From Verrucomicrobiota bacterium (GTDB taxonomy: Bacteria > Verrucomicrobiota > Verrucomicrobiia > Chthoniobacterales > JAFAMB01), in assembly GCA_019239825.1 (NCBI GenBank), contig JAFAZK010000163.1, positions 1 through 55,611 on the forward strand: 55,611 bases of DNA, given 5' to 3'. The notes below the pieces were generated by a model that was given only the letters and a program-made list of their open reading frames with translations, made no database searches and was not told the DNA's origin. This document shows positions 3,098-53,005 of this stretch, one piece after another. The first letter of the stretch is position 1. Each line of letters opens with the position of its first letter. A program made the translations under genes and the position numbers.

Positions 3098-3100
3098 CCG

Positions 3101-3237
3101 CAATCGTACTCGTACTCGTCCTCGAAGGCTTTAGGCGTAGCTGCGGTCTCAAGCGTCGAGCTTCCAAGCCGCGGACCTCCGGCGATTCAATTGCTGCAGA
3201 ACGAAATCGAGGACGACGACGAGTACGAGTACGATTG
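3101..3237. repeat. Family C palindrome, copy C1
   Basis: The left arm at 3101-3125 (core TCGTACTCGTACTCGTCCTC) is complementary to the right arm at 3207-3237. The right arm carries an extra GACGAC. The 81-base centre has no coding signal. Related arms occur at 25331-25360, 37214-37243, 37600-37632, 48931-48946 and 49261-49286, where they enclose or adjoin other repeats. Confidence 0.8.
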
Positions 3238-16038: not shown

Positions 16039-16165
16039 GGAGGGAATTCACAATACACAAAGATCGCAAAGGACACGAAGACTCAGCGAAACTAAAGGCT
16101 ATGCTTTTGATTCACTCGTCCGTCTCTGTGTCTGAAGTGATCTTTGTCTATTGTGAATTCCCTCC
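16039..16165. repeat. 27-bp inverted repeat, 73-base loop
   Basis: The left arm at 16039-16065 (GGAGGGAATTCACAATACAC and seven more bases) is matched by the right arm at 16139-16165, with one mismatch in 27. The loop carries degenerate E/F-like sequence. The element lies upstream of both the CLC gene (minus strand) and the binding-protein gene (plus strand). Confidence 0.85.
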
Positions 16166-16166
16166 G

Positions 16167-16207
16167 TCTTTTCTTTGCGTCTTTGCGTCTTTGCGTGAGA
16201 TTTTCTA
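16167..16207. repeat. Family F arm
   Basis: Tandem TTTGCGTC units ending in TTTGCGTGAGATTTTC, the same as at 1509-1550 and the right arm at 44966-44996. It ends 31 bases before the start of the binding-protein gene. Confidence 0.6.
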
Positions 16208-17190: not shown

Positions 17191-17234
17191 GTGGAGCGCT
17201 GCCTTCCCGCGGCCGCGGGAAGGCAGCGCTCCAC
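17191..17234. repeat. Perfect 44-base palindrome
   Basis: Each half is 22 bases with no spacer. The left half begins GTGGAGCGCTGCCTTCCCGC and its exact reverse complement follows. There is no T-tract, so a simple intrinsic terminator is doubtful. It could end transcription or be another mobile palindromic unit. Confidence 0.9.
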
Positions 17235-19507: not shown

Positions 19508-19727
19508 AACCGCAGATGGACGCGGATTTACGCAGATGAAGAGTTAACCGCGAAGGGACACGAATGGACGCGAATGAAGAAAGTGATCAGTAAGAGTCAG
19601 TAATCAGTATTCATATCCTGGACGACTAGTACCGCTTTACTGATTACCGATTGCTTTTATTCGCATCGATTCGTGTCCATTCGCGGTTTAGCTCTTCATC
19701 TGCGTATATCTGTGTTCATCTGCGGTT
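19508..19727. repeat. Three-layer nested palindrome (D outer, D middle, G inner)
   Basis: Layer 1: 19508-19543 (CCGCAGATGGACGCGGATTT core) against 19692-19727. Layer 2: 19546-19575 (GACACGAATGGACGCGAAT) against 19659-19688, 3 mismatches in 30. Layer 3: CAGTAATCAGTA near 19597 against TACTGATTAC near 19638. The element lies between the convergent trehalose fusion and hydroxypyruvate-isomerase-like genes. Confidence 0.85.
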
Positions 19728-22390: not shown

Positions 22391-22801
22391 AACCGCGAAT
22401 GGACACAAATAGACGCGAATAAAATCGCAACAAAGTAGCAGCGCGCCCATCGGCTGGAGGGGAGCCGCTTTGGCCTGTGACGGTTCGACCTCCTATATTT
22501 GTCCAAGACGCGCCTATGGCCTCGACGTGGGTTAAACAAGCGGCTCCCGCGAATTACCCACGGTGACCTTTTCACACAGCGATTCGGTTCGAACGATTCC
22601 ACGTGAAGACCGATCGGAATGCGAAACGCCGGATACGTTCGCGGAAGCCGCCCGTTTAACATCATGTCCGGCCAAACACGCACCGGGATAAAACACGCGA
22701 GGCCCAATCTATCACGCTCCAAAGCAGCTCCCCTGCTATGGAGATCGGTGTGCATCTCCTTTGTCGCAAATTCTTCGCGTCCATTCGTGTCCATTCGCGG
22801 T
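22391..22801. repeat. Family D arms enclosing family A element
   Basis: The left D arm at 22391-22420 (ACCGCGAATGGACAC core) and the right D arm at 22770-22801 (GTGTCCATTCGCGGT core) face each other across a complete family A element (22454-22737). Element A therefore sits inside the loop of a D palindrome. Confidence 0.8.
22454..22737. repeat. Family A palindromic element, copy A1
   Basis: The outer arms are CTGGAGGGGAGCCGCTTTGG at 22454 and CTCCAAAGCAGCTCCCC ending near 22733. The inner arms are GTTAAACAAGCGGCTCCCGC at 22541 and GCGGAAGCCGCCCGTTTAAC at 22641. The core GGAGCCGCTT thus occurs four times in alternating orientation. No coding frame was accepted inside. Confidence 0.8.
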
Positions 22802-25330: not shown

Positions 25331-25360
25331 AATCGTCTCCGTACTCGTCGTCGTCCTCCC
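25331..25360. repeat. Family C left arm
   Basis: AATCGTCTCCGTACTCGTCG and following bases match the C arm family. It precedes the family A element at 25451. The matching right arm is not clear. CGAGTAAGAGGACGATTGG near 25770 may be its remnant. Confidence 0.5.
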
Positions 25361-25450
25361 TACTTCGCCTCGTCGTTTAGACTCCGGAGGCTTCGTAGGG
25401 CAAGCGGTCCTCGAAGGGTGGCAAGTTGAGGCGATGTGTAAACGCGTGCC

Positions 25451-25731
25451 GCCTGGAGGGGGGCCGCTTTGGCACGTCTGCCGCCACTCTCGCAACTTTC
25501 ACTCCATCACTAGTCCGGCCGAAATGTATGAAAACAGGCGACTCCCGGGAACGTCTCATCGTTTCGCAGCTTTACGGTCCGGGTGTAAACGAATCGAAAG
25601 CCATGGGCGAATGCATCGCGCTGGGCAATTCGCGGAAGCCGCCCGTTACAACATTCTTTGACCGGATGAAGTGCGTGAACGAATATTGCGAGGTCGTTCG
25701 ATTTCGCGCCAAAGCGGCTCCCCTCCAGGCG
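25451..25731. repeat. Family A palindromic element, copy A2
   Basis: The best-conserved outer arms: GCCTGGAGGGGGGCCGCTTT at 25451 and AAAGCGGCTCCCCTCCAGGC ending at 25730, about one mismatch over 23 positions. The inner arms are AACAGGCGACTCCCGGGAAC near 25533 and TTCGCGGAAGCCGCCCGTTA near 25629. Confidence 0.85.
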
Positions 25732-25831
25732 ATGGGCATTTATACATCGCGTCAACTCGCCACCGTTTCGAGTAAGAGGACGATTGGCAATTCGCCTTGA
25801 CGGTCGTCTGCAAGGCTCGACCGTTTTCAAT

Positions 25832-33030: not shown

Positions 33031-33039
33031 AACCAGACA

Positions 33040-33255
33040 ATTTCACCACAGTGACACGGAGAACATAGAGAAAATAATCCGCAGATTTCACAGATCACGG
33101 TTGTAAGGCCTATCTACGCCATCTGGTTGAACAAACCACCCGTGAATGGGCGACGTTGTGTCTCCTGTGACGATCGATCAACCTGAGATGAAATCTGCGT
33201 AATCTGTGAAATCGGCGGATTATTTCCTCTGTGTTCTCTGTGTCTCTGCGGTGAA
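33040..33255. repeat. Family E inverted repeat, copy E2
   Basis: The left arm from 33040 (TTTCACCACAGTGACACGGA, then AATAATCCGCAGATTTCACA) faces the right arm at 33191-33255 (TCTGTGAAATCGGCGGATTA, then TCTGTGTCTCTGCGGTGAA). It fills the gap between the divergent allB and epimerase genes. Confidence 0.85.
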
Positions 33256-33311
33256 TCCTGTTTCCTTGGCCGGACTTGCTATTTACCCGGGGCTGCGATT
33301 GAGTCCCATCC

Positions 33312-34160
33312 ATGATTGTGGTTACCGGAGGCAGCGGAAAGGCTGGGCGATTCTGTATTAGCGAACTCGCCGATCACGGCTACGAGCTATGCAACGTCGA
33401 TCAAGTTAGCGGCAGCGATCCAAGTATTCCCTTTAGCCAAGTTGATTTGACGGATTTCGGTCAGACCATGGCCGCTTTATCCGGGATCGATGAACGAGTT
33501 CGGAAAGTCACTGGAATCGTCCATCTAGCGGCTATTCCCGCTCCTGGGCGTGCACCTAATCACGTCACTTTCGAGACAAACACTATCAGCACTTACAACG
33601 TCTTCGAAGCTGCCAGACAGCTCCAAATCAAAAACATCGTTTGGGCCTCAAGCGAGACCGTCCTCGGCTTGCCGTTCGACATTCCACCTCCCTACGTCCC
33701 GGTCGACGAAGAATATCCGGCTCGGCCCGAGACAGCCTACTCGCTCTCCAAGCTGGTCGGAGAAGAGATGGCCAAACAATTTTGCCGCTGGGATCCCGAG
33801 CTGAAAATTATCGGGCTGCGACTCTCGAATGTGATGAGCCCGGAAGATTATGACCACTTTCCTGGTTTCCAGGATGACGCTCGTAAGCGGAAATGGAATG
33901 TGTGGAGTTATATCGATGCGCGGGATGCCGCCCAAGCATTCCGTCTCGCCCTGGAAGTGGATCTAAAAGGGGCCGAGGTTTTTATTATCGCGAACGCAGA
34001 CACCGTCATGCTCCGAGATAACAAAGGATTGCTGGCCGAAGTATTTCCCGGCGTCCCCCAAAAGAGTTCTTTCGGACCGAACGACTCACTGTTCTCGATT
34101 GAGAAAGCCAGGCGAGTCCTCAAATACGAGTCGAAATACAGTTGGCGTACGCAGCAATAA
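33312..34160 (+). CDS. NAD-dependent epimerase/dehydratase (extended SDR)
   Basis: A 282-residue extended short-chain dehydrogenase. MIVVTGGSGKAGRFCISEL is the Rossmann NAD loop (TGGSGKAG), and VHLAAIPAP is the next family strand. The catalytic pair is Y and K in AYSLSKLVGEE, with the preceding S in WASSET. WSYIDARDAAQAFRLAL is also typical. The group contains UDP-sugar epimerases and uronate dehydrogenases. Substrate is not fixed by the sequence. Uronate dehydrogenase is conceivable, since hexuronate genes are present, but proof is lacking. Family E palindromes lie on both sides of the gene. Confidence 0.82.
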   Translation: MIVVTGGSGKAGRFCISELADHGYELCNVDQVSGSDPSIPFSQVDLTDFGQTMAALSGIDERVRKVTGIVHLAAIPAPGRAPNHVTFETNTISTYNVFEAARQLQIKNIVWASSETVLGLPFDIPPPYVPVDEEYPARPETAYSLSKLVGEEMAKQFCRWDPELKIIGLRLSNVMSPEDYDHFPGFQDDARKRKWNVWSYIDARDAAQAFRLALEVDLKGAEVFIIANADTVMLRDNKGLLAEVFPGVPQKSSFGPNDSLFSIEKARRVLKYESKYSWRTQQ

Positions 34161-34161
34161 T

Positions 34162-34379
34162 AATTCACCACAGAGGCACAAAGAGCACAGAGAGGAAGAT
34201 CCGCAGATTTCGCCGATCACGCAGATTTCTTTTCGAGGAAACGCATCGCGATGCAACAAAACACAGCCATCACTTCACACGGGATTCCCTTAACTGAGCT
34301 GCGAACTAGCGCCTAGAACCGAAATCTGCGTAATCTGCGGATTATTTTCTCTGTGTTCTCAGTGCCTCTGTGGTGAAAT
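34162..34379. repeat. Family E inverted repeat, copy E3
   Basis: The left arm (AATTCACCACAGAGGCACAA, then CCGCAGATTTCGCCGATCAC) faces the right arm at 34321-34379 (GAAATCTGCGTAATCTGCGG, then CAGTGCCTCTGTGGTGAAAT). It starts just after the epimerase stop and ends 17 bases before the kdgK-like ATG. Confidence 0.85.
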
Positions 34380-34395
34380 TTTGATTCGTTGTCCC

Positions 34396-35364: not shown

Positions 35365-36014
35365 GCCTTTTTAAACAGCGAACTCTGTACTACCGAACGA
35401 ATGAACCCGGTTTTCGCGTCGGTATAGGCGTCACGATCCTGCCGATACTGGTCGGCAAGCGCCCGCTTTAGCACCGCATATTCTGATGCCAGCTCGGGAT
35501 CCTGCCGCAGAGCGTTCCTGAAACGCAGATGTTCGATCAATGGGCGGGCATCCATTTCAGACACATAAAGATGATGGAACGGCAGATCGATTACGCACCG
35601 AAAAACCTCGCGATCCGGAACACCGCATGGACCTCGGTGAATGTAGCCGAATCTCTCCAAACGCTCTTTGACAGCGGGAAATTGGTATGAGGAGGAGATC
35701 ACAACTTCGATATCGATGATCGGCTTGGCGGCAAGTCCGGGTACCGCTGTACTCCCTACGTGTTCAATAGCGAGCACTAACGGGCCAAGCTGCTGCCGCA
35801 GCTCGTGCTCGATACACGAAAAAAGATAAGGCCATTGGGTATCGTAGTTGGAGATTCGTACCTCCAACGCGGTCTTCGATTTCACCGCCACAATCGCATC
35901 CGAGAGGCGAATCCGAGTCGAGTCATCGAGCTTTTGCCAAAGGCGGCGGTCGATCGGTTTACCACTTAGGTACTCCTTCAACGTACTGGTCAATGGTGGA
36001 CCGAGCGTATCCAT
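35361..36014 (-). CDS. GrpB/UPF0157 nucleotidyltransferase-fold protein
   Basis: A 217-residue protein. The last 165 residues match GrpB (UPF0157): VLAIEHVGSTAVPGLAAKPIIDIEV carries the GS and DxE pattern of the nucleotidyltransferase fold, followed by RCVIDLPFHHLYVSE, HLRFRNALRQDPELASEYAVLK and DRDAYTDAKTGFI. The family's function is not established. Relatives are fused to CoaE-type domains in some bacteria. Here a 50-residue N-terminal extension (LKEYLSGKPIDRRLWQKLDD) of unknown role is present. ATG at 36014 was preferred to a TTG at 36050. It overlaps the kdgK-like gene tail to tail. Confidence 0.85.
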   Translation of the reverse strand: MDTLGPPLTSTLKEYLSGKPIDRRLWQKLDDSTRIRLSDAIVAVKSKTALEVRISNYDTQWPYLFSCIEHELRQQLGPLVLAIEHVGSTAVPGLAAKPIIDIEVVISSSYQFPAVKERLERFGYIHRGPCGVPDREVFRCVIDLPFHHLYVSEMDARPLIEHLRFRNALRQDPELASEYAVLKRALADQYRQDRDAYTDAKTGFIRSVVQSSLFKKA

Positions 36015-36081
36015 TGGTTCTTTGTACTTCGGCGACTTTACTTCTTTCAATTAATCCGGCAGCAAATTTGTTGCACCATCG

Positions 36082-37206
36082 ATGTCTGAACTGATTTCCA
36101 TTCTTATTATTCTTGGCTCGCTGGCTTGGCCATGCATTTTGCTCCTGCCATGGAAACCAGGGAGCACGCGAGAGCGGCTCGATAACGTCGATGCCTCTCC
36201 AGAGCGTGACCTGTCCGATGTGACCGTCTTGATCCCAGCTCGTAACGAAGCTGAGTCGATCAGCGGGACACTGAGGGGACTAGAACAGCAAGGTCAGAAT
36301 CTGGCCGTTGTCGTGATTGACGATCGGTCCTCAGATGGCACCGCCGACCTCGCTAAGAAAAGCTTTCGTGGCGACCTCCGGGTTCTTCGCGGCGAAGAAC
36401 TGCCGGCAGGTTGGGTGGGGAAACTCTGGGCTCTGGAACAAGGCCGGCAGGTGGTTACCACCGAATTGATCGTGTTGCTCGACGCCGATATTGAGCTCGC
36501 TTCCGGAACCATTGGCGCTCTCAAGTCGAAGCTGAAAACAGAGAACCTCGATCTCATCTCTTTGATGGCAGAGCTACGCATGCAAACACTTTGGGAAAAG
36601 GTTCTTTCCCCGGCATTTATTTTCTTCTTCAAGCTGCTTTATCCTTTTGCTGTGGGAAACGATCCGCGTTCTCGATTGGGTGTAGCTGCCGGGGGATGTA
36701 TTCTGATACGGGCGGACAAACTCGAGGCAATCGGAGGATTCGGCGCGTTAAGAACGAGCATTATCGACGATTGCGAACTGGCCAAGCGAGTGAAGCAAAT
36801 AGGCGGTAAGCCTTGGATCGGGTTGACCCACTCTGCCAAAAGCCAACGCCCATATCCCAGCTTGGGCAGCTTCTGGAATATGGTTGCCCGAACGGCGTTT
36901 ACTCAGCTGCAATACTCTGCGCTTCTGCTGTTGCTAACGACTCTGCTTATGGTTTTCGTTTTCTGGTGTCCGGTCCTGGGCCTTGCCCATCGCTCGATGA
37001 TAGTAAGAACGACCTCCTCGGTCGGGCTCGTTTCAATGTGGCTTGCTTACTTACCAGTGGTCCGATTTTATCGGCAGACTCCCTTTCTTGTGATCACGCT
37101 CCCGATTGTCGCCTCGCTTTACCTTTTGATGACTTGGTCCTCGGCCGTTCGCTATTGGCGCGGCCAGCGATCAATATGGAAAGGGCGAAGTTATGGGAGA
37201 GCGTAG
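36082..37206 (+). CDS. hpnB: HpnB-like family 2 glycosyltransferase
   Basis: A 374-residue membrane glycosyltransferase. Residues 1-25 form a membrane anchor. The GT-A domain begins VTVLIPARNEAESI, with VVVIDDRSSDGTADLA and LIVLLDADIELASG as the nucleotide and metal (DxD-like) sites. ELPAGWVGKLWALEQG, FFFKLLYPFAVGNDPRSR, AAGGCILIRADKLEAIGG and IIDDCELAKRVKQIGG follow HpnB of hopanoid gene clusters almost step for step. Three or four C-terminal spans follow. HpnB's exact reaction is not settled. No squalene-hopene cyclase gene is adjacent, so a link to hopanoids rests on similarity only. Confidence 0.82.
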   Translation: MSELISILIILGSLAWPCILLLPWKPGSTRERLDNVDASPERDLSDVTVLIPARNEAESISGTLRGLEQQGQNLAVVVIDDRSSDGTADLAKKSFRGDLRVLRGEELPAGWVGKLWALEQGRQVVTTELIVLLDADIELASGTIGALKSKLKTENLDLISLMAELRMQTLWEKVLSPAFIFFFKLLYPFAVGNDPRSRLGVAAGGCILIRADKLEAIGGFGALRTSIIDDCELAKRVKQIGGKPWIGLTHSAKSQRPYPSLGSFWNMVARTAFTQLQYSALLLLLTTLLMVFVFWCPVLGLAHRSMIVRTTSSVGLVSMWLAYLPVVRFYRQTPFLVITLPIVASLYLLMTWSSAVRYWRGQRSIWKGRSYGRA

Positions 37207-37213
37207 GATCCCA

Positions 37214-37632
37214 CAATCGTACTCGTCGTCGTTCTCGAAAGCGCTGGCCCGTTAACAAAACGTGTTGGTTTCTAACGCCTGGAGGGGAGCCGATTTGGAC
37301 CGTAGCAATACTCCTTACATGTCGGTGCGAAAAGTCATTGCACGACTCAACGTCGTGTAGGAGGCGGCCCCCGGAAACGTCTCCGCGCGTGAACTACATG
37401 AGCGATGTTTGATCGTTCGGATCAAACGGAGACTCTAAAGGTTGTGGCGACATCAGGGTACGTTTGCGGGAGTCGCCTGCCAGCACATGGTTACTACTGC
37501 CAAACACACTGTCCCAAAAAAGTGGGTTCAAATTCGGACGCGCCAAAGCGACTCCCCTCCAAGCGCTGGATCAGATCGCGCATCATATAAACGTGCCCGC
37601 TCTTTCGAGGACGAGGACGATTACGAGTACGA
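37214..37632. repeat. Family C arms enclosing family A element
   Basis: The left C arm at 37214-37243 (TCGTACTCGTCGTCGTTCTC) and the right C arm at 37600-37632 (CGAGGACGAGGACGATTACG) face each other across a complete family A element (37277-37565). This is the clearest case of one palindrome nested in another. Confidence 0.85.
37277..37565. repeat. Family A palindromic element, copy A3
   Basis: Outer arms: GCCTGGAGGGGAGCCGATTT at 37277 and CCAAAGCGACTCCCCTCC ending near 37560. The T in GATTT and the A in GCGACT are mutations relative to the other copies. Inner arms: GGAGGCGGCCCCCGGAAACG near 37360 and TTTGCGGGAGTCGCCTGCCA near 37463. Confidence 0.8.
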
Positions 37633-37638
37633 TGCTCT

Positions 37639-38487
37639 CTAAAGCTCCGAACTCGGAGGAGTCAGCAGAAAGGCGGAGCCGACGGCGATCGCGACCAAGG
37701 CGATGACACTGAGCATTCGGATCAGAAGCGACTTTGCTCGGGACGAAATTTTCGGGCGGTCCAAGCGTTGGCCGATCACGAGAGCCCAAGGAGCGATCCA
37801 AAGTAGAATCGCAGTGAGCCAAGGCAGTTGCGCGAAGAGGCAACCACTCAGAAGCAAGGAGCCAAAGATGAAAAGATAGACCAGCGGTAAAACTCTCCCC
37901 ACGGTTGCGTTAAAGAAAAACGCGAGAACCGCGATCACTCCCAGTATTGCCCCCATCGAACCGCTGACTTGGCCTAGCACAGCCGATCCTCCCAAGAAAA
38001 TGACGATTCCCCCGGCGCCCGCAGAAAAGGCAAGCCCGAGTGAGAGTTCGGCTCCAGAACAACGGTCTTCGATCAATTGTTGCAACAAGATGGTGCTGAC
38101 AAACAACACAATCGTCACCGCGATGACCCAGACCAAGGCCGGTGTGTTCCCGGAAATTTGCGACCAAAAGAAAATGAGAGCCGTACCTAGCGAAAGGACC
38201 AGATTGGAAACTTGGCGCACTAGTCGGTTGCCTTGAAGACAACCGACTAAGGCAACCGCGCCGGCTAGATAGGGAATCCATTGACCGGACTCCCGAGGCG
38301 GCAAGGCAAAACCGCCAAAGGCAAGCAGGTAGGCCCAGATAATTCCTCCAGAGAAGATCAACCCAATGCCAATTGCGAGAAGCCTGGGATGTTTCCGGAA
38401 GACGGCAAACCACACCGCACTCGCAATCAGCACTGCCAAGGACGGCAAACCGACCCCTTGGAGAGACTGGATAACCATCTGATTCAT
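37639..38487 (-). CDS. Polytopic membrane protein of unknown function
   Basis: I do not recognise this 282-residue protein. It has about eight or nine hydrophobic segments evenly spread from residue 12 to 275, with short loops. Small charged loops occur near RKHPR (31-35), EDRCSG (about 140) and QRLDRPKISSRAKS (about 245). The glycine-rich segment FSAGAGGIVIFLGGSAVLG lies mid-protein. There is no signature of a known transporter. It follows yceI on the same strand after 28 bases, so the two may form an operon. Its end adjoins a family C repeat. Confidence 0.65.
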   Translation of the reverse strand: MNQMVIQSLQGVGLPSLAVLIASAVWFAVFRKHPRLLAIGIGLIFSGGIIWAYLLAFGGFALPPRESGQWIPYLAGAVALVGCLQGNRLVRQVSNLVLSLGTALIFFWSQISGNTPALVWVIAVTIVLFVSTILLQQLIEDRCSGAELSLGLAFSAGAGGIVIFLGGSAVLGQVSGSMGAILGVIAVLAFFFNATVGRVLPLVYLFIFGSLLLSGCLFAQLPWLTAILLWIAPWALVIGQRLDRPKISSRAKSLLIRMLSVIALVAIAVGSAFLLTPPSSEL

Positions 38488-38515
38488 ATGGCCGGCTCTC
38501 TAGCAGCCCAAGTTC

Positions 38516-39088
38516 TTACTGCTTAATGCCTTCGACCGCGATGCGAAGCAATACTTCGTCGGTGACAGCAGGTAAGAAGGTTTTCACTTCGAAATCGCTT
38601 CTCTTCAAGGTGGCTGTTGCCTCCCAACCGGAACGAAACTCGCCTTTCGGGCCAGGTCCGCTCCCAATCGCTTGGACGTTCAAAGTCAAAGGTTTGGTAA
38701 CACCACGGAGTGTGAAATCTCCGGTTACTTCGTACGTTTTATCGTCGACTTTCTTTACCGAGGTGCTCTTGAAGGTCGCGCTAGGGAACTGAGCGGCGTT
38801 GAAGAAATCGGGGCTCTTAATGTGTTTATCGCGGTCGGGAAAATTGGTGTCGACGCTGTCGGTTTTTATCTCGACGCTGACTGTATCCTTCGATGCGTCA
38901 CTCTGATCGAGCGTAAAGGTACCACTAAAGGTATCGAATCGGCCGTAGATGTGACCGACCCCGAAATGTCCGATCTCAAATATGATTGCGGAATGGACTG
39001 GGTCGATCTTGAAGGTGTCCGCGGGGGCAAGCGTTGCCCCAGCGAAGGCGAGGAGACTCAATAGAATTGAGAGATGGTGCTTTTTCAT
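38516..39088 (-). CDS. YceI-family periplasmic protein
   Basis: A 190-residue exported lipocalin-like protein. Residues 1-23 are a signal peptide ending PADT. The mature part is one YceI barrel: FKIDPVHSAIIFEIGHFGVG, GRFDTFSGTFTLD, KHIKSPDFFNAAQFPSATFKS, GDFTLRGVTKPLTL and DEVLLRIAVEG. Family members bind polyprenoid chains such as ubiquinone precursors, and some respond to acid or osmotic stress. The ligand is not predictable here. It is followed by a membrane protein gene on the same strand, which is worth noting because many YceI genes pair with a cytochrome b561-like membrane protein. This neighbour does not look like one. Confidence 0.92.
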   Translation of the reverse strand: MKKHHLSILLSLLAFAGATLAPADTFKIDPVHSAIIFEIGHFGVGHIYGRFDTFSGTFTLDQSDASKDTVSVEIKTDSVDTNFPDRDKHIKSPDFFNAAQFPSATFKSTSVKKVDDKTYEVTGDFTLRGVTKPLTLNVQAIGSGPGPKGEFRSGWEATATLKRSDFEVKTFLPAVTDEVLLRIAVEGIKQ

Positions 39089-39786
39089 CGTTTTGTTGAA
39101 CTCAGCTCAATGGGTTTTGGGTTTGTCCTGGGGGATGAGGACGGTCTCAGGTGAAGGTAGTCAGACTAGAGACCGGAGAGAACGGATAGACAACCAAAAG
39201 GCAGGGAACTGATGCATTGTTTTGCAGACGATAGTTGCTTAAACAACGCATGTTGTCAAATCGGGCTTTTGGGCTCGATTCTGCCAGGTGTTTGGTGCGA
39301 TCGAGGCCCTGGTAACAAACGACAGGAAAGTCTAGGGCCAGCGAGAACTTGCCGCGCGAACGAGCCTTGAAGGACGTTTTCAAACGGTGGCTATTTGGGC
39401 ACATGCGGGTTCTAGATTAGCGTTTGACGCGGGGCGTTTTTTATGTTCCACTGCTGGTTCGCTTTTTCGAATGAAATTCTGGGGCAGCGAAAAAACTTTG
39501 AATCGTTTTCGGGTGCTGATGTGTATTACATTTGAAAGCTAGGCGACAAGAGTGCATTGCGACGAGCAACTGCGCTAGTGAGGCCATCGATGCCGGTCCG
39601 TTCGAAACATCGAGGCTTCAGATAAGTGCGAAAAAGAAGAAAGAAAACGTTGAACACCCGGCGGGGGTGCGTTGTCAAAGGACAGGTTATTCTTTAAGGA
39701 GGTTAAGCAATATCGTCGGCTAAAGGGGGGCGATATTTCTTTATTTAAAGGGTTGGCTACGAAATCATTGAACTAGTAAATCAAGT
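39089..39786. other. Long leader/spacer upstream of rpoD
   Basis: About 700 bases without a convincing gene. Visible structures: CGGTCTC/GAGACCG at 39142-39175; an 11-base stem with one mismatch, ATGCATTGTTT (39212) against AAACAACGCAT (39241-39251); and AATATCG/CGATATT around 39709-39741. A strong Shine-Dalgarno (AAGGAGG) occurs at 39698 without a start codon at normal distance. A 63-codon frame at 39532-39723 has no family likeness. No known riboswitch was seen. Confidence 0.4.
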
Positions 39787-40647
39787 ATGGCTGGCGAAGA
39801 TTCAGATACTGGCATTAAGATTTATCTCCGGGAAATCGGGCAAATCCCGTTGCTCACTCCCCAAGAAGAAATCGAGCTCGCTGCCCGTATCAAAAAAGGA
39901 GACAGAGAAGCGCGGGCTCTGATGATCAAGGCGAATTTGCGACTTGTTGTTAAGATCGCCCATGATTACGCGAATTTGGGACTTCCGTTGTTGGACCTTA
40001 TTTCCGAAGGAAATATCGGCCTGATGAAGGCCGTGGAACGTTTTGATCCCGCAAAGGGAGGTAAGCTTAGCACCTACGCTGCCTGGTGGATTAAGCAATC
40101 TATCAAGCGAGCGCTGGCAAATCAAAGTAAGACGATCCGGCTACCCGTTCATCTGGTCGATAAGATTTCCAAGATGCGACGAGTCTCGCTGCAAATGAGC
40201 GAGGAACTGGGCCGCGAACCGACCGACGAAGAGTTGGCTGAGGAAATCGGTATTTCGAGCGGTAAGGTGTCCCAGTTAAAGACGGTTTCAATTCGTCCAG
40301 CCTCACTGGATGCGCCTATCAGCGATGACGACTCCACCGAGTTTGGGGAAATCGTCGGTGACGAGGATGCACAGACTCCGTTCGAGCTCTTGCGAGACAA
40401 GAACTTGCGCGATGAGGTCAGTGAGCTCCTGGAAGTTTTAGACGACCGCGAACGGAAGATTATTTTCCAGCGATTCGGCCTCGATGGTGGAAAACCGAAG
40501 ACCCTCGAGGAAGTTGGCAAGAAATTCGGGGTTACCCGGGAAAGAATTCGGCAGCTCCAAAATATCGCTTTGGCGAAATTGCGGCGGGCGTTAAGCAAGA
40601 AAGAAAAGCCGATCGAAATCCCGCAGGAGATCTTCGAGTTCAACTAA
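39787..40647 (+). CDS. rpoD: RNA polymerase sigma factor, RpoD/SigA family
   Basis: A 286-residue sigma-70 protein lacking region 1.1. Region 1.2 is IKIYLREIGQIPLLTPQEE. Region 2 has LDLISEGNIGLMKAVERFDP and KLSTYAAWWIKQSIKRAL, the core-binding and -10 recognition helices. Region 3 is KISKMRRVSLQMSEELGREP. Region 4 has DDRERKIIFQRFGLDGG and TLEEVGKKFGVTRERIRQLQ for -35 recognition. The short form without 1.1 resembles the primary sigma of some deep bacterial lineages, but also group 2 factors, so primary status is likely, not proven. A strong terminator follows at 40721. Confidence 0.9.
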   Translation: MAGEDSDTGIKIYLREIGQIPLLTPQEEIELAARIKKGDREARALMIKANLRLVVKIAHDYANLGLPLLDLISEGNIGLMKAVERFDPAKGGKLSTYAAWWIKQSIKRALANQSKTIRLPVHLVDKISKMRRVSLQMSEELGREPTDEELAEEIGISSGKVSQLKTVSIRPASLDAPISDDDSTEFGEIVGDEDAQTPFELLRDKNLRDEVSELLEVLDDRERKIIFQRFGLDGGKPKTLEEVGKKFGVTRERIRQLQNIALAKLRRALSKKEKPIEIPQEIFEFN

Positions 40648-40720
40648 TCGGAGAAAGATTTAAACGGGAGCGAAAGGGTAGCGGAGGAGCTTTCTCCGTT
40701 TATCTTTCCTGAAGTCTTTT

Positions 40721-40762
40721 ATTAGGCCGGCCGGGATTTACCTGGCTGGCCTAATCGTTTTT
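40721..40762 (+). terminator. Intrinsic terminator after rpoD
   Basis: ATTAGGCCGGCC at 40721-40732 pairs with GGCTGGCCTAAT at 40744-40755 (one G-T pair). The loop is 11 bases and TCGTTTTT follows directly. Confidence 0.85.
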
Positions 40763-40771
40763 GAGGCAAGA

Positions 40772-41063
40772 GCCTGGAGGGGAGCCGCTTTGGATCGTGC
40801 CCCGAAGGACCCGTGATATTTGTCTCGGCGCGTGCCCGGCCGCAGATCTCTTTAAACAGGCGGCTCCCGAGAACGTTTCAACGCGTCGCAGGAGTTCGGC
40901 GGGTTGAACGAACCAAGAATCCCTGAGCGGCATGATGGGACAAAACACTGTGTGCGGTAATTCGCGGGAGCCGCTTGTTTAACACCTTATCTGGCCTTCG
41001 TCTCCCCCGAAAGGATATCGCCGGGCCTCCTGGGCAAGATCAAAAGCGGCTCCCCCCAGGTGG
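40772..41063. repeat. Family A palindromic element, copy A4
   Basis: Outer arms: GCCTGGAGGGGAGCCGCTTT at 40772 and AAAAGCGGCTCCCCCCAGGT ending near 41061. Inner arms: AAACAGGCGGCTCCCGAGAA near 40854 and TTCGCGGGAGCCGCTTGTTT near 40963. It starts 10 bases after the rpoD terminator and has no C or D arms around it. Confidence 0.85.
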
Positions 41064-41175
41064 ACGCCGCTCGCCGGCTTTTTACAATTATCTAAATTGT
41101 CTGATACGTCGGCTTGACATACAACAGCTTGTCCATTAGCTGTCTCCTCCCATTCAATTTCAGCCGGAGCTACGC

Positions 41176-41712
41176 ATGGCAGTCACTGAAGTTATTCTCA
41201 AAGAAAATATTCCTGGTCTCGGCGCCGAAGCCGACGTGGTCAAGGTACGCCGGGGATTCGCTCGCAACTTCCTGGTTCCTCAAGGTAAGGCCTACGAAGT
41301 GACCCCGGCCAACCTCAAGCGTCTGAACCTTTTAAAAGCCAAGCGGGCAGAGCGAGAAGCGCGTGAACTAAACGAAGCCGAAGAACTCGCTCGCAAGATC
41401 AATAAGGTTAAGCTCGACTTCACTCTGGAAACAGGTGAGACCGGAAAGGCCTTTGGCTCGGTCACAGCAAAAGACATTGAAGATAAGCTATTTGCAGAAG
41501 CCGATATCAAAATCGATCGCCATCGGATTCGGCTCGAGCGACCTATCAAAGAAAGCGGCGAGATCGAAGTGCCAATTCACCTGCACGCCGATGTTACCGC
41601 GGCTTTAAAAATCGAAGTTAAGGCCCAGACGCCTGCTCCGAAGGAACCAGAACCCGAAGCTAAGGACAGCAAGCTAAAGACCCGTAAGCGCACGAAGACG
41701 ACTGCGAGTTAA
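41176..41712 (+). CDS. rplI: 50S ribosomal protein L9
   Basis: A 178-residue L9, longer than the usual 150 through a charged C-terminal tail (about 155-178: EPEPEAKDSKLKTRKRTK). The N-terminal rRNA-binding domain has VILKENIPGLGAEADVVKVRRGFARNFLVP in two halves, the family's signature. A long helix follows (KRAEREARELNEAEELARK), then the C-terminal domain GKAFGSVTAKDIEDKL. L9 binds 23S rRNA near the L1 stalk and limits frameshifting. dnaB starts two bases after its stop codon. The rplI-dnaB order is common in bacteria and suggests one transcript. Confidence 0.95.
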   Translation: MAVTEVILKENIPGLGAEADVVKVRRGFARNFLVPQGKAYEVTPANLKRLNLLKAKRAEREARELNEAEELARKINKVKLDFTLETGETGKAFGSVTAKDIEDKLFAEADIKIDRHRIRLERPIKESGEIEVPIHLHADVTAALKIEVKAQTPAPKEPEPEAKDSKLKTRKRTKTTAS

Positions 41713-44874: not shown

Positions 44875-44996
44875 AAATCTCACGCAAAGACGCAAAGGCG
44901 CAAAGGTTAAGAAAAACAGCCCGATCCATCGCCTCGAGGTCGAAAACGGTCGCCCTGCATGGTCATAACCTTTGCGTCTTTGCGTCTTTGCGTGAG
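44875..44996. repeat. Family F inverted repeat, paired copy
   Basis: The left arm at 44875-44911 (TCTCACGCAAAGACGCAAAG) faces the right arm at 44966-44996 (CTTTGCGTCTTTGCGTGAG). It lies between the regulator gene and the kinase gene of a two-component system, so it is probably transcribed within that operon. Confidence 0.85.
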
Positions 44997-45016
44997 TTTA
45001 TTCTTCGTTTCCTCCC

Positions 45017-48930: not shown

Positions 48931-49286
48931 TTCCTTCGTCCTCGAAGGTCTGGTGGGGCGAGGCTCCGAAAACGTAACAAGCCACCGATATGTTTGCGGT
49001 TAGTAGCTGGTCCAGCCGAATCGGTTAAGCAGCATGGCCGAGCCGGGGGCGGGAACGGCAAGCAGGATAGACTTAATTTTTCCTCCGAGGCTGGCTTGGC
49101 TTCTGCCCCGCGGAACAAAGGCTCTATTCAAGTTTACGAGACGAAAACCCACCCAACCCCCAGCTCGGCCATGTTGCTTCACGTATTAGCCAAGCCGACC
49201 GCCGAAATAAAATATGCCGGCGGTTGGTTGCATCTTGGAGCCTTGCCCCACCAAGGCACTCGAGGAACGAGGACGAGGACGAAGGA
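48931..49286. repeat. Family C arms enclosing a complete family B element
   Basis: C arms: TTCCTTCGTCCTCGAAGG from 48931 and CGAGGAACGAGGACGAGGAC from 49261. Inside, outer B arms TGGTGGGGCGAGGCTCC (48951-48967) and GGAGCCTTGCCCCACCA (49237-49253) differ by one base. The inner B arms (49027-49049 and 49157-49179, core GCATGGCCGAGC) differ at two of 23 positions. Confidence 0.85.
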
Positions 49287-52688: not shown

Positions 52689-52861
52689 AAGATCGGATAA
52701 ACGACGGTCCTCCACAATTGAGTGATAGATCTCTACCAGACCCGGCGAGGTTAAACGAGTTCAAGCACCGAAGTCTATCAAGATCCAGGCAACACTGGGG
52801 GCTCAACAAAAGCGCGTCGGCCCCACTTGTGTTTGGCCGAGACTTGATTAAATAAACAATC

Positions 52862-52925
52862 GCGGCAATGGAGTTTGCCTGCCGATATCTCGGCCAACCG
52901 CCCTTCGGGCTGATGACTCCTACCA
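52862..52925 (+). ncRNA. Fluoride riboswitch (crcB motif)
   Basis: The segment has the order of conserved blocks of the crcB RNA: GGCAATGGAGTTTGCC at 52864, a variable hairpin, CAACCGCCC, then GGGCTGATGACTCCTACC at 52908-52924. GGCTGATGACTCCTAC is a near-exact match to the 3' signature of the motif, and GGCAATGGAGTTTGCC to its 5' stem. It lies 80 bases before crcB1 in the same orientation. A GC-rich stem (ACACGCC at 52958, GGCGTGT at 52976) between riboswitch and start may be part of the switch. Confidence 0.93.
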
Positions 52926-53005
52926 AAGAAATAGATTTGGCCAGGTAGTTTAATCAGACACGCCATATTCACGGCGGCGTGTTGTTGAGTCCGAAATAAG
53001 TTGGA

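What the first reader, a model, noticed from the sequence alone, without database searches (positions are those of the whole stretch)
37214..37632. Nested palindromes: family A element inside family C arms
The C arms at 37214-37243 and 37600-37632 pair with each other and enclose a complete family A element that has its own outer and inner arms. The same nesting occurs as A in D (22391-22801), B in C (48931-49286) and G in D (19508-19727). One reading is that new palindromes insert into the loop of existing ones, for example at extruded hairpins. I know of no described element family that behaves this way.
Basis: partly seen in the sequence, partly recalled or inferred. Interest (0 to 1): 0.75.

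Follow-up and report, generated by a model that had tools for sequence, protein, structure and literature searches.

The report
Palindromes nested at older palindromes' centres
Between the genes of a Verrucomicrobiota bacterium, mirror-image DNA repeats sit inside one another like shells, and at several sites three related genomes share outer shells while their centres differ, so new repeats likely enter at the tip of the hairpin that an older repeat would form.

Summary
The nest is real: C arms (37215-37238, 37605-37633) enclose a complete ~285-bp A element, and the other three nestings exist too. At 37214 the "A in C" is one of many composite C-M-A-M-C units (M is a shared spacer arm) and G002 has it at the same site, so this locus shows no insertion event. 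Elsewhere the nesting idea holds. Of A copies without M flanks, 17 of 55 in three genomes lie inside a flanking palindrome, against 7.8% of random intergenic points, a median 1 nt off its axis against 35 nt; a later extra 739 kb alone gave only 3 of 24. Orthologous sites show shared outer arms with different cores: C vs C{A}, C vs C{B}, B vs B{A}, J{A}/J{B}/J{K}, J{C} vs J{C{B}}. No target duplication was seen; flanks match as inverted repeats. I infer that older palindromes are targets at their hairpin tips and that the newcomer replaces the tip. The enzymology (template switching, hairpin-targeted transposition, conversion between palindromes with like arms) is open. Nested palindromes are described in Volvox organelles and IS elements target REPs; layered nesting at the axis in a bacterial chromosome looks like a new variant.

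The parts
37215..37238 (+). C family, left outer arm
37239..37278 (+). M spacer arm (left), of the type shared by many A-in-C copies
   Evidence: G002 ortholog; G002 copies
37279..37562 (.). A element (outer arms 37279-37298 and 37543-37562; inner arms 37359-37377 and 37463-37481)
37563..37604 (-). M spacer arm (right)
37605..37633 (-). C family, right outer arm
22392..22801 (.). A element (22454-22738) inside D arms; A also present at the G002 ortholog
25340..25790 (.). A element (25453-25728) inside C-type arms; C-type outer arms read in G002 and G003 with other inner content
48931..49286 (.). B element (48951-49253) inside C arms; G003 has C arms without B at this site
19509..19726 (.). D arms inside G arms, with a third pair inside; G002 and G003 carry F arms with different cores at this site
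3105..3235 (.). C palindrome without an insert (empty state); G003 also empty, G002 holds C-M-A-M-C here
40774..41060 (.). A element just after a terminator-like hairpin (40721-40755); present in G002, absent in G003

Best explanation
These are layered mobile palindromes in which the outer arms are, at the sites that relatives let me order, the older layer and the newer palindrome sits on the axis of the older one, likely because the tip of the hairpin that the older repeat would form is the target. Shown: A sits on the axis of many unrelated palindromes; at several orthologous sites the outer arms are shared while the core differs; no flanking direct repeat is seen. Inferred: the old palindrome extrudes or folds back on single-stranded DNA, its tip is lost, and another palindrome is copied or joined in at the break, so that both host arms are trimmed about equally. 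Once formed, a nest such as C-M-A-M-C can spread as one unit; I take the cited locus to be such a unit. I think it most likely that the step happens during replication, by template switching between hairpins that share short arm stretches, and would be tolerated because no clear SbcD was found; this step is untested.
For: Axis position: among A copies without the M flank, 8/24 (G000), 6/22 (G002), 3/9 (G003) have pairing flanks, vs 627/7991 random intergenic points; offset from the axis median 1 nt (n=17) vs 35 nt (n=627), MWU p 1.1e-9. Re-pairing the flanks of different non-M copies gave 9 of 1086. On 1.50 Mb of G000, which includes the first 762 kb: 17/59 of all A copies, 11/48 without M, vs 552/7991; offset median 4 nt (n=11, without M) vs 34. 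Several hosts: D, F, J, B, H and N-type arms and one-off palindromes. Shared outer arms, different core: window 3098 (C; C; C{MAM}), 48931 (C; C{B}), 25335, 19494; G000 C134:2600 (B; B{MAM}), C348:9640 (J with A, K or B), C348:8240 (J with A or B); C348:~940-1150 (J{C}, J{C{B}}, J{K}), C70/L285 (C; C{MAM}) (place of the first). G003 is the more distant genome (anchor identity 84.8 and 86.7 vs 89.3 between G000 and G002), so C alone is the older state at 3098. Where A or B is absent, the orthologous interval still holds a palindrome in 27 of 37 comparisons (23 sites by my count), or 17 of 26 when intervals that hold the other of A/B are left out, vs 120 of 416 intergenic stretches without A/B. 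Flanks match inverted; direct matching at the ends was not found. SbcD: no match over the cut-off in 4 of 4 genomes of the genus, 1 of 11 genomes overall.
Against: At 37214 the nest is shared by G000 and G002 and belongs to a composite family, so it is no insertion event. The 739 kb added contribute only 3 of 24 non-M copies (5 of 26 of all A), not above chance on their own. The 55 non-M copies are not all independent: window 22454 and L297 are one orthologous site. An automatic test found host arms conserved on both sides (score >= 12, a threshold chosen by eye without its own null) in only 7 of 37 element-absent comparisons (5 sites); the other cases rest on reading. 10 of those 37 intervals held no palindrome of score >= 18. 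B is not significant by count (4/27, p 0.16; 5/43, p 0.17). 38 of 55 A copies without M show no detectable host palindrome. A few nt next to A are conserved and palindromic. 6 of 14 control genomes also miss the SbcD cut-off, so a miss does not prove absence. The replication step has no direct evidence; A's fixed ends also suit a transposase.
Confidence: 0.55

Rival explanations
1. Composite units: C-M-A-M-C is one element whose ends are C, copied as a whole or exchanged by gene conversion between palindromes with like outer arms; no insertion into loops takes place.
For: M-type flanks in 9 of 33 (G000), 26 of 48 (G002), 12 of 21 (G003) A copies; the same C-M-A order in many G002 copies; the C loop is lost at 3098 in G002; at two shared sites the flanking arms agree within a copy (0.86, 0.89) more than between orthologs (0.62, 0.67).
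Against: A also lies at the axis of F, D, N, J, H, B and one-off palindromes; one J palindrome holds A, K or B in three genomes. Shared arms of ~20-30 nt are thin homology for conversion (general knowledge).
Confidence: 0.3
2. A transposase, not yet found, moves A (and others) and prefers hairpin tips, as IS elements that target REPs do. This shares the target of the best explanation and differs in the enzyme.
For: A has fixed architecture and sharp terminal repeats; in a scan that scored up to 5 candidates per genome it was found in 4 of 147 genomes of the order, three of them of this genus; IS elements that insert into REPs are described (PMC1525189).
Against: No direct repeat at the ends; the three Y1 transposase genes found in G000 lie beside other palindromes, with no A to G or J arm in the 2.3-3.3 kb fetched around each; C, K and others also appear as cores, which one transposase would not explain. 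Other transposase families were not searched.
Confidence: 0.3
3. Outer arms are younger: after A lands, fold-back copying at its hairpin duplicates one flank onto the other side and makes the flanks palindromic.
For: Pairing often runs right up to the A ends (offset 0); one-off flanking palindromes exist (L280).
Against: The same outer arms occur in relatives without A: C at 3098, J at C348:9640, B at C134:2600, and C at 48931 without B; outer arms belong to families found alone elsewhere.
Confidence: 0.08
4. Chance: intergenic spaces are short and full of palindromes, so elements land in each other.
For: 120 of 416 control intergenic stretches hold a palindrome; B is not enriched by count.
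Against: Axis offset and rate of A both exceed random intergenic points from the same sequence.
Confidence: 0.04

Closest known systems
Short palindromic repeats of Volvox carteri mitochondrial and plastid DNA (PMC2670323; passages and one section read)
   Same: Several palindrome families; a palindrome is often found inserted within another, giving larger composite repeats, some present at several places
   Different: Organelle DNA; single units 11-79 nt with loops of usually 3-5 nt; the parts read give no axis test and no empty/filled site comparison
Yeast mitochondrial GC clusters (PMC4478555; passages and one section read)
   Same: Mobile palindromes that merge and shuffle
   Different: Mitochondrial, with an AG target; nesting at the axis of other clusters was not in the passages read
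IS elements that target REPs: IS1397, IS621, ISKpn1, ISPpu9/10 (PMC1525189; abstract and passages read)
   Same: A palindrome is the preferred landing site
   Different: The incomer is an insertion sequence, not another palindrome; one layer
REPs and RAYT-moved REPINs (PMC3733652 passages; PMC3116915 search listing only)
   Same: Intergenic, high copy, hairpin-forming
   Different: A and B arms were not found beside the three RAYT genes of this genome
Prokaryotic MITEs (PMC10969869; passages read)
   Same: Short, terminal inverted repeats, intergenic
   Different: No target duplication detected; no parent IS found (only Y1 transposases sought); nesting at the axis of other palindromes

Membership tests
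MITE | terminal inverted repeats on a short element | tested here: met
   A ~285 bp with a ~20-nt terminal repeat, B ~214 or ~285 bp
MITE | target site duplication | tested here: not met
   135 distinct A and 55 distinct B copies: no direct-repeat signal at the A ends (best signals, z up to 4.8, lie at odd offsets and are small); for B the best z is 2.7 among many offsets tried. Old copies could have lost a short duplication
MITE | parent IS with the same ends | tested here: inconclusive
   only Y1 transposases were looked for; other families not searched
MITE | no transposase gene inside | not tested
   no homology search was run on reading frames inside A or B
REP/REPIN moved by a RAYT | same palindrome beside the RAYT gene | tested here: not met
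   3 RAYT-type genes found in G000, none with A to G or J arms in the fetched DNA around them
IS-type targeting of REPs | lies repeatedly inside palindromes, beyond chance | tested here: met
   A; B not by count
IS-type targeting of REPs | codes a transposase | not tested
   A is ~285 bp; its frames were not searched
Volvox-type nested palindromes | palindromes of one family found inside those of another | tested here: met
Volvox-type nested palindromes | shared mechanism or ancestry | not testable with these tools
   mechanism unknown here and not given in the parts of the paper read

The most novel reading that the evidence does not exclude
Palindromes in this genus grow inward in layers by hairpin-tip exchange: during replication a polymerase leaves the arm of one folded palindrome, copies another palindrome whole, and returns to the opposite arm, with no transposase. 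Intergenic spaces would then carry a readable stratigraphy, oldest outside and youngest at the axis, made possible by the lack of SbcCD.
Probability: 0.3. Interest if true: 0.85.

Novelty: new variant of a known kind. Interest (0 to 1): 0.6.

Why it matters
If centres of palindromes are insertion targets, intergenic DNA of these bacteria records a relative order of events at each site. That would make the question of how REP-like repeats spread, and whether hairpins on single-stranded DNA are their landing sites, open to direct test by comparing closer relatives. It may also tie the abundance of long palindromes to the apparent lack of a clear SbcD in four draft genomes of the genus.

Tried and rejected
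Arm search with a best-match regular expression lost hits and was replaced by a full mismatch scan. Rfam at gathering scores found only a fluoride riboswitch in the window; no tRNA. RAYTs were considered as movers of A and B and set aside. Arm homogenisation within a copy was tested on 13 comparisons of shared, palindrome-flanked A sites: within-copy 0.69, ortholog 0.66, cross 0.64; two comparisons stand out, the mean does not. Target duplications: none seen at the ends. A promoter/terminator scan of 36000-41300 gave no clear regulatory reading beyond a terminator-like hairpin at 40721-40755. Paper searches (open-access library only) listed no bacterial case like this in the titles and abstract starts shown; most hits were not opened. 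No structure prediction and no protein homology search was run.

Of 43 element-absent comparisons, 4 repeats under a second contig name and 2 with spans over 1000 nt were dropped, leaving 37. Genome searches scored 40 candidates each and are not used as counts. The re-paired control with M copies included is much higher in G002 (18.6% at score 18) and G003 (9.1%) than in G000 (1.4%), because M arms are shared; hence the test without M. The identification of G002 with JAFAHI and of G003 with JAFAIO rests on matching contig lengths and A positions. Mended on checking: the J{C{B}} site lies at C348 ~940-1150, and confidence was lowered from 0.60 to 0.55 because the added 739 kb alone show little enrichment.

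Full report
Observation. The window (G000:C222, a contig of a 6.67-Mb draft genome in 349 contigs) holds the described nest. C arms at 37215-37238 and 37605-37633 pair; between them lie a spacer arm (M) on each side and one A element, 37279-37562, with outer and inner arms.

Anatomy of the parts. In 762 kb of G000, most A copies follow one plan: outer arm, inner arm at about +80, inner arm at about +185, outer arm at about +265. Conservation falls off just outside CTGGAGGGG. B has two main size classes, about 214 and 285 bp, with ends TTTGGTGGGGCGAGGCTCC. The 1.50-Mb sample holds 59 A and 43 B copies with full flanks, and about 15% of it is intergenic by a simple ORF mask. At E <= 1e-6, with up to 5 candidates scored per genome, A was found in 4 of 147 genomes of the order: G000, G002, G003 and, weakly, G010 of the same family; G001 of the same genus gave none.

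The cited locus is a composite. Among flanks of 82 A ends, single linkage gives a cluster of 21, many of which share the M spacer next to A and C-type arms further out; the next clusters have 15 and three times 2 members, and 40 are singletons. M-type flanks occur in 9 of 33 (G000), 26 of 48 (G002) and 12 of 21 (G003) A copies. G002 carries an A-in-C nest at the orthologous gap between two convergent genes; the G003 contig ends inside the site and shows the half of A next to the shared gene. So 37214-37632 is best read as one copy of a C-M-A-M-C unit formed before G000 and G002 parted (or renewed there in each), and shows no insertion event by itself.

Nesting at the axis is general for A. For A copies without M flanks, 8 of 24, 6 of 22 and 3 of 9 (G000, G002, G003) have flanks that pair at score >= 18, against 627 of 7991 random intergenic points of G000; the offset of A from the axis of the flanking palindrome has median 1 nt (n=17), against 35 nt for random points inside palindromes (n=627). 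Flanks re-paired between different non-M copies reach that score in 2 of 552, 7 of 462 and 0 of 72. On the larger G000 sample, which includes the first: 17 of 59 A copies, 11 of 48 without M (offset median 4 nt against 34), 5 of 43 B copies, 552 of 7991 random points. The added 739 kb alone give 3 of 24 without M, which is weak. B is not enriched by this count, but base-by-base inverted matching of the flanks exceeds the highest of 2000 re-pairings for B in all three stretches tested (nt 4-15: 0.368 vs mean 0.272) and for A without M in two of three (0.368 vs 0.291 at nt 4-15; at nt 16-35 0.307 does not exceed the highest re-pairing, 0.313). Hosts include D, F, J, B, H and N-type arms and one-off palindromes, besides C.

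Filled and empty sites. (i) Window 3098: C alone in G000 and G003, C-M-A-M-C in G002. (ii) Window 48931: C alone in G003, B in C in G000, another small palindrome in G002. (iii) Window 25335: C-type arms outside in all three, three different cores. (iv) Window 19494: F arms with different cores in G002 and G003, G{D} in G000. (v) C134:2600: B alone in G003, B around M-A-M in G002, a decayed form in G000. (vi) C348:9640: J arms in all three; core A in G000, a GTGGAC-word palindrome (K) in G002, B in G003. (vii) C348:8240: J with A in G000 (left arm decayed), J with B in G003, another palindrome in G002. (viii) C348 ~940-1150: J{K} in G000, J{C} in G003, J{C{B}} in G002, a step series. (ix) C70 / L285: C alone in G000, C-M-A-M-C in G002. 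(x) Window 40774: A in G000 and G002, none in G003, beside a terminator-like hairpin. Other element-absent sites show unrelated palindromes or none. Anchor identities are 89.3 (G000-G002), 84.8 (G000-G003) and 86.7 (G002-G003), so G003 is the outer genome. An automatic test found both host arms conserved in 7 of 37 element-absent comparisons (5 sites: i, ii, vi, viii, ix); the remaining cases are my reading. The interval without the element still held a palindrome (score >= 18) in 27 of 37 comparisons, or 17 of 26 without intervals that hold the other of A and B, against 120 of 416 control intergenic stretches; the comparisons are not independent (23 sites by my count).

Mechanism. Shown: position at the axis, shared outer arms with changing cores at several sites, inverted but not direct matching at the ends. 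At 3098 and C134:2600 the old interior is gone and both host arms are kept to similar lengths (about 24 and 26 nt of B in G002; reading). Inferred: the hairpin tip of the older palindrome is the target and is replaced. Which process does it is open; I favour template switching between hairpins because several unrelated families serve as cores and as hosts, no target duplication is seen and no matching transposase was found (only Y1 transposases were sought). Long palindromes would be tolerated if SbcCD is absent: no match over the SbcD cut-off in 4 of 4 genomes of the genus, all drafts, and 1 of 11 overall; but 6 of 14 well-known control genomes miss that cut-off too.

Known relatives. Nested palindromes are stated for Volvox organelle DNA (PMC2670323). 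Merger and shuffling of palindromic GC clusters is stated for yeast mitochondria (PMC4478555). REPs as IS targets are in PMC1525189. I therefore call this a new variant of a known kind. That I know of no bacterial case in print is limited to searches in an open-access library, whose hits were mostly seen as listings.

Noticed in passing
window 52855-52929 (+): Fluoride riboswitch (Rfam RF01734, 54.2 bits).
   Followed up: no
L111, L112, L113 (G000 C143, C207, C118): Three Y1 (RAYT-type) transposase genes, each beside its own palindrome words (AGCTCCGTAGGAGCGGCAT; CCCAGGGCTTTAGCCCTGGG; CCTGGGGTTTCAACCCCAGG). A word like the first also forms the core inside C-type arms in G002 at the site orthologous to window 25335.
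   Followed up: partly
window 33039-33256 and 34159-34382: Two E-family palindromes flank an epimerase-like gene (33312-34160) on both sides.
   Followed up: no
several sites, e.g. L183 (C348) and window 16039-16207, 44876-44999: Many outer families have arms made of 6-12 nt words in loose tandem (GGAGCTA, GTGAGAG, GGTTCTA, CAGTAAT, GTGGACA, GCAAAGAC). Origin unexplained; from memory, similar words occur in other phyla.
   Followed up: no
window 17191-17234: A 44-bp perfect palindrome without a loop (GTGGAGCGCTGCCTTCCCGCGG and its complement); G003 has similar left-arm sequence followed by B at this site.
   Followed up: partly
G000, G001, G002, G003: No SbcD match over the curated cut-off in any of the four genus genomes; one of seven other relatives has one.
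   Followed up: partly
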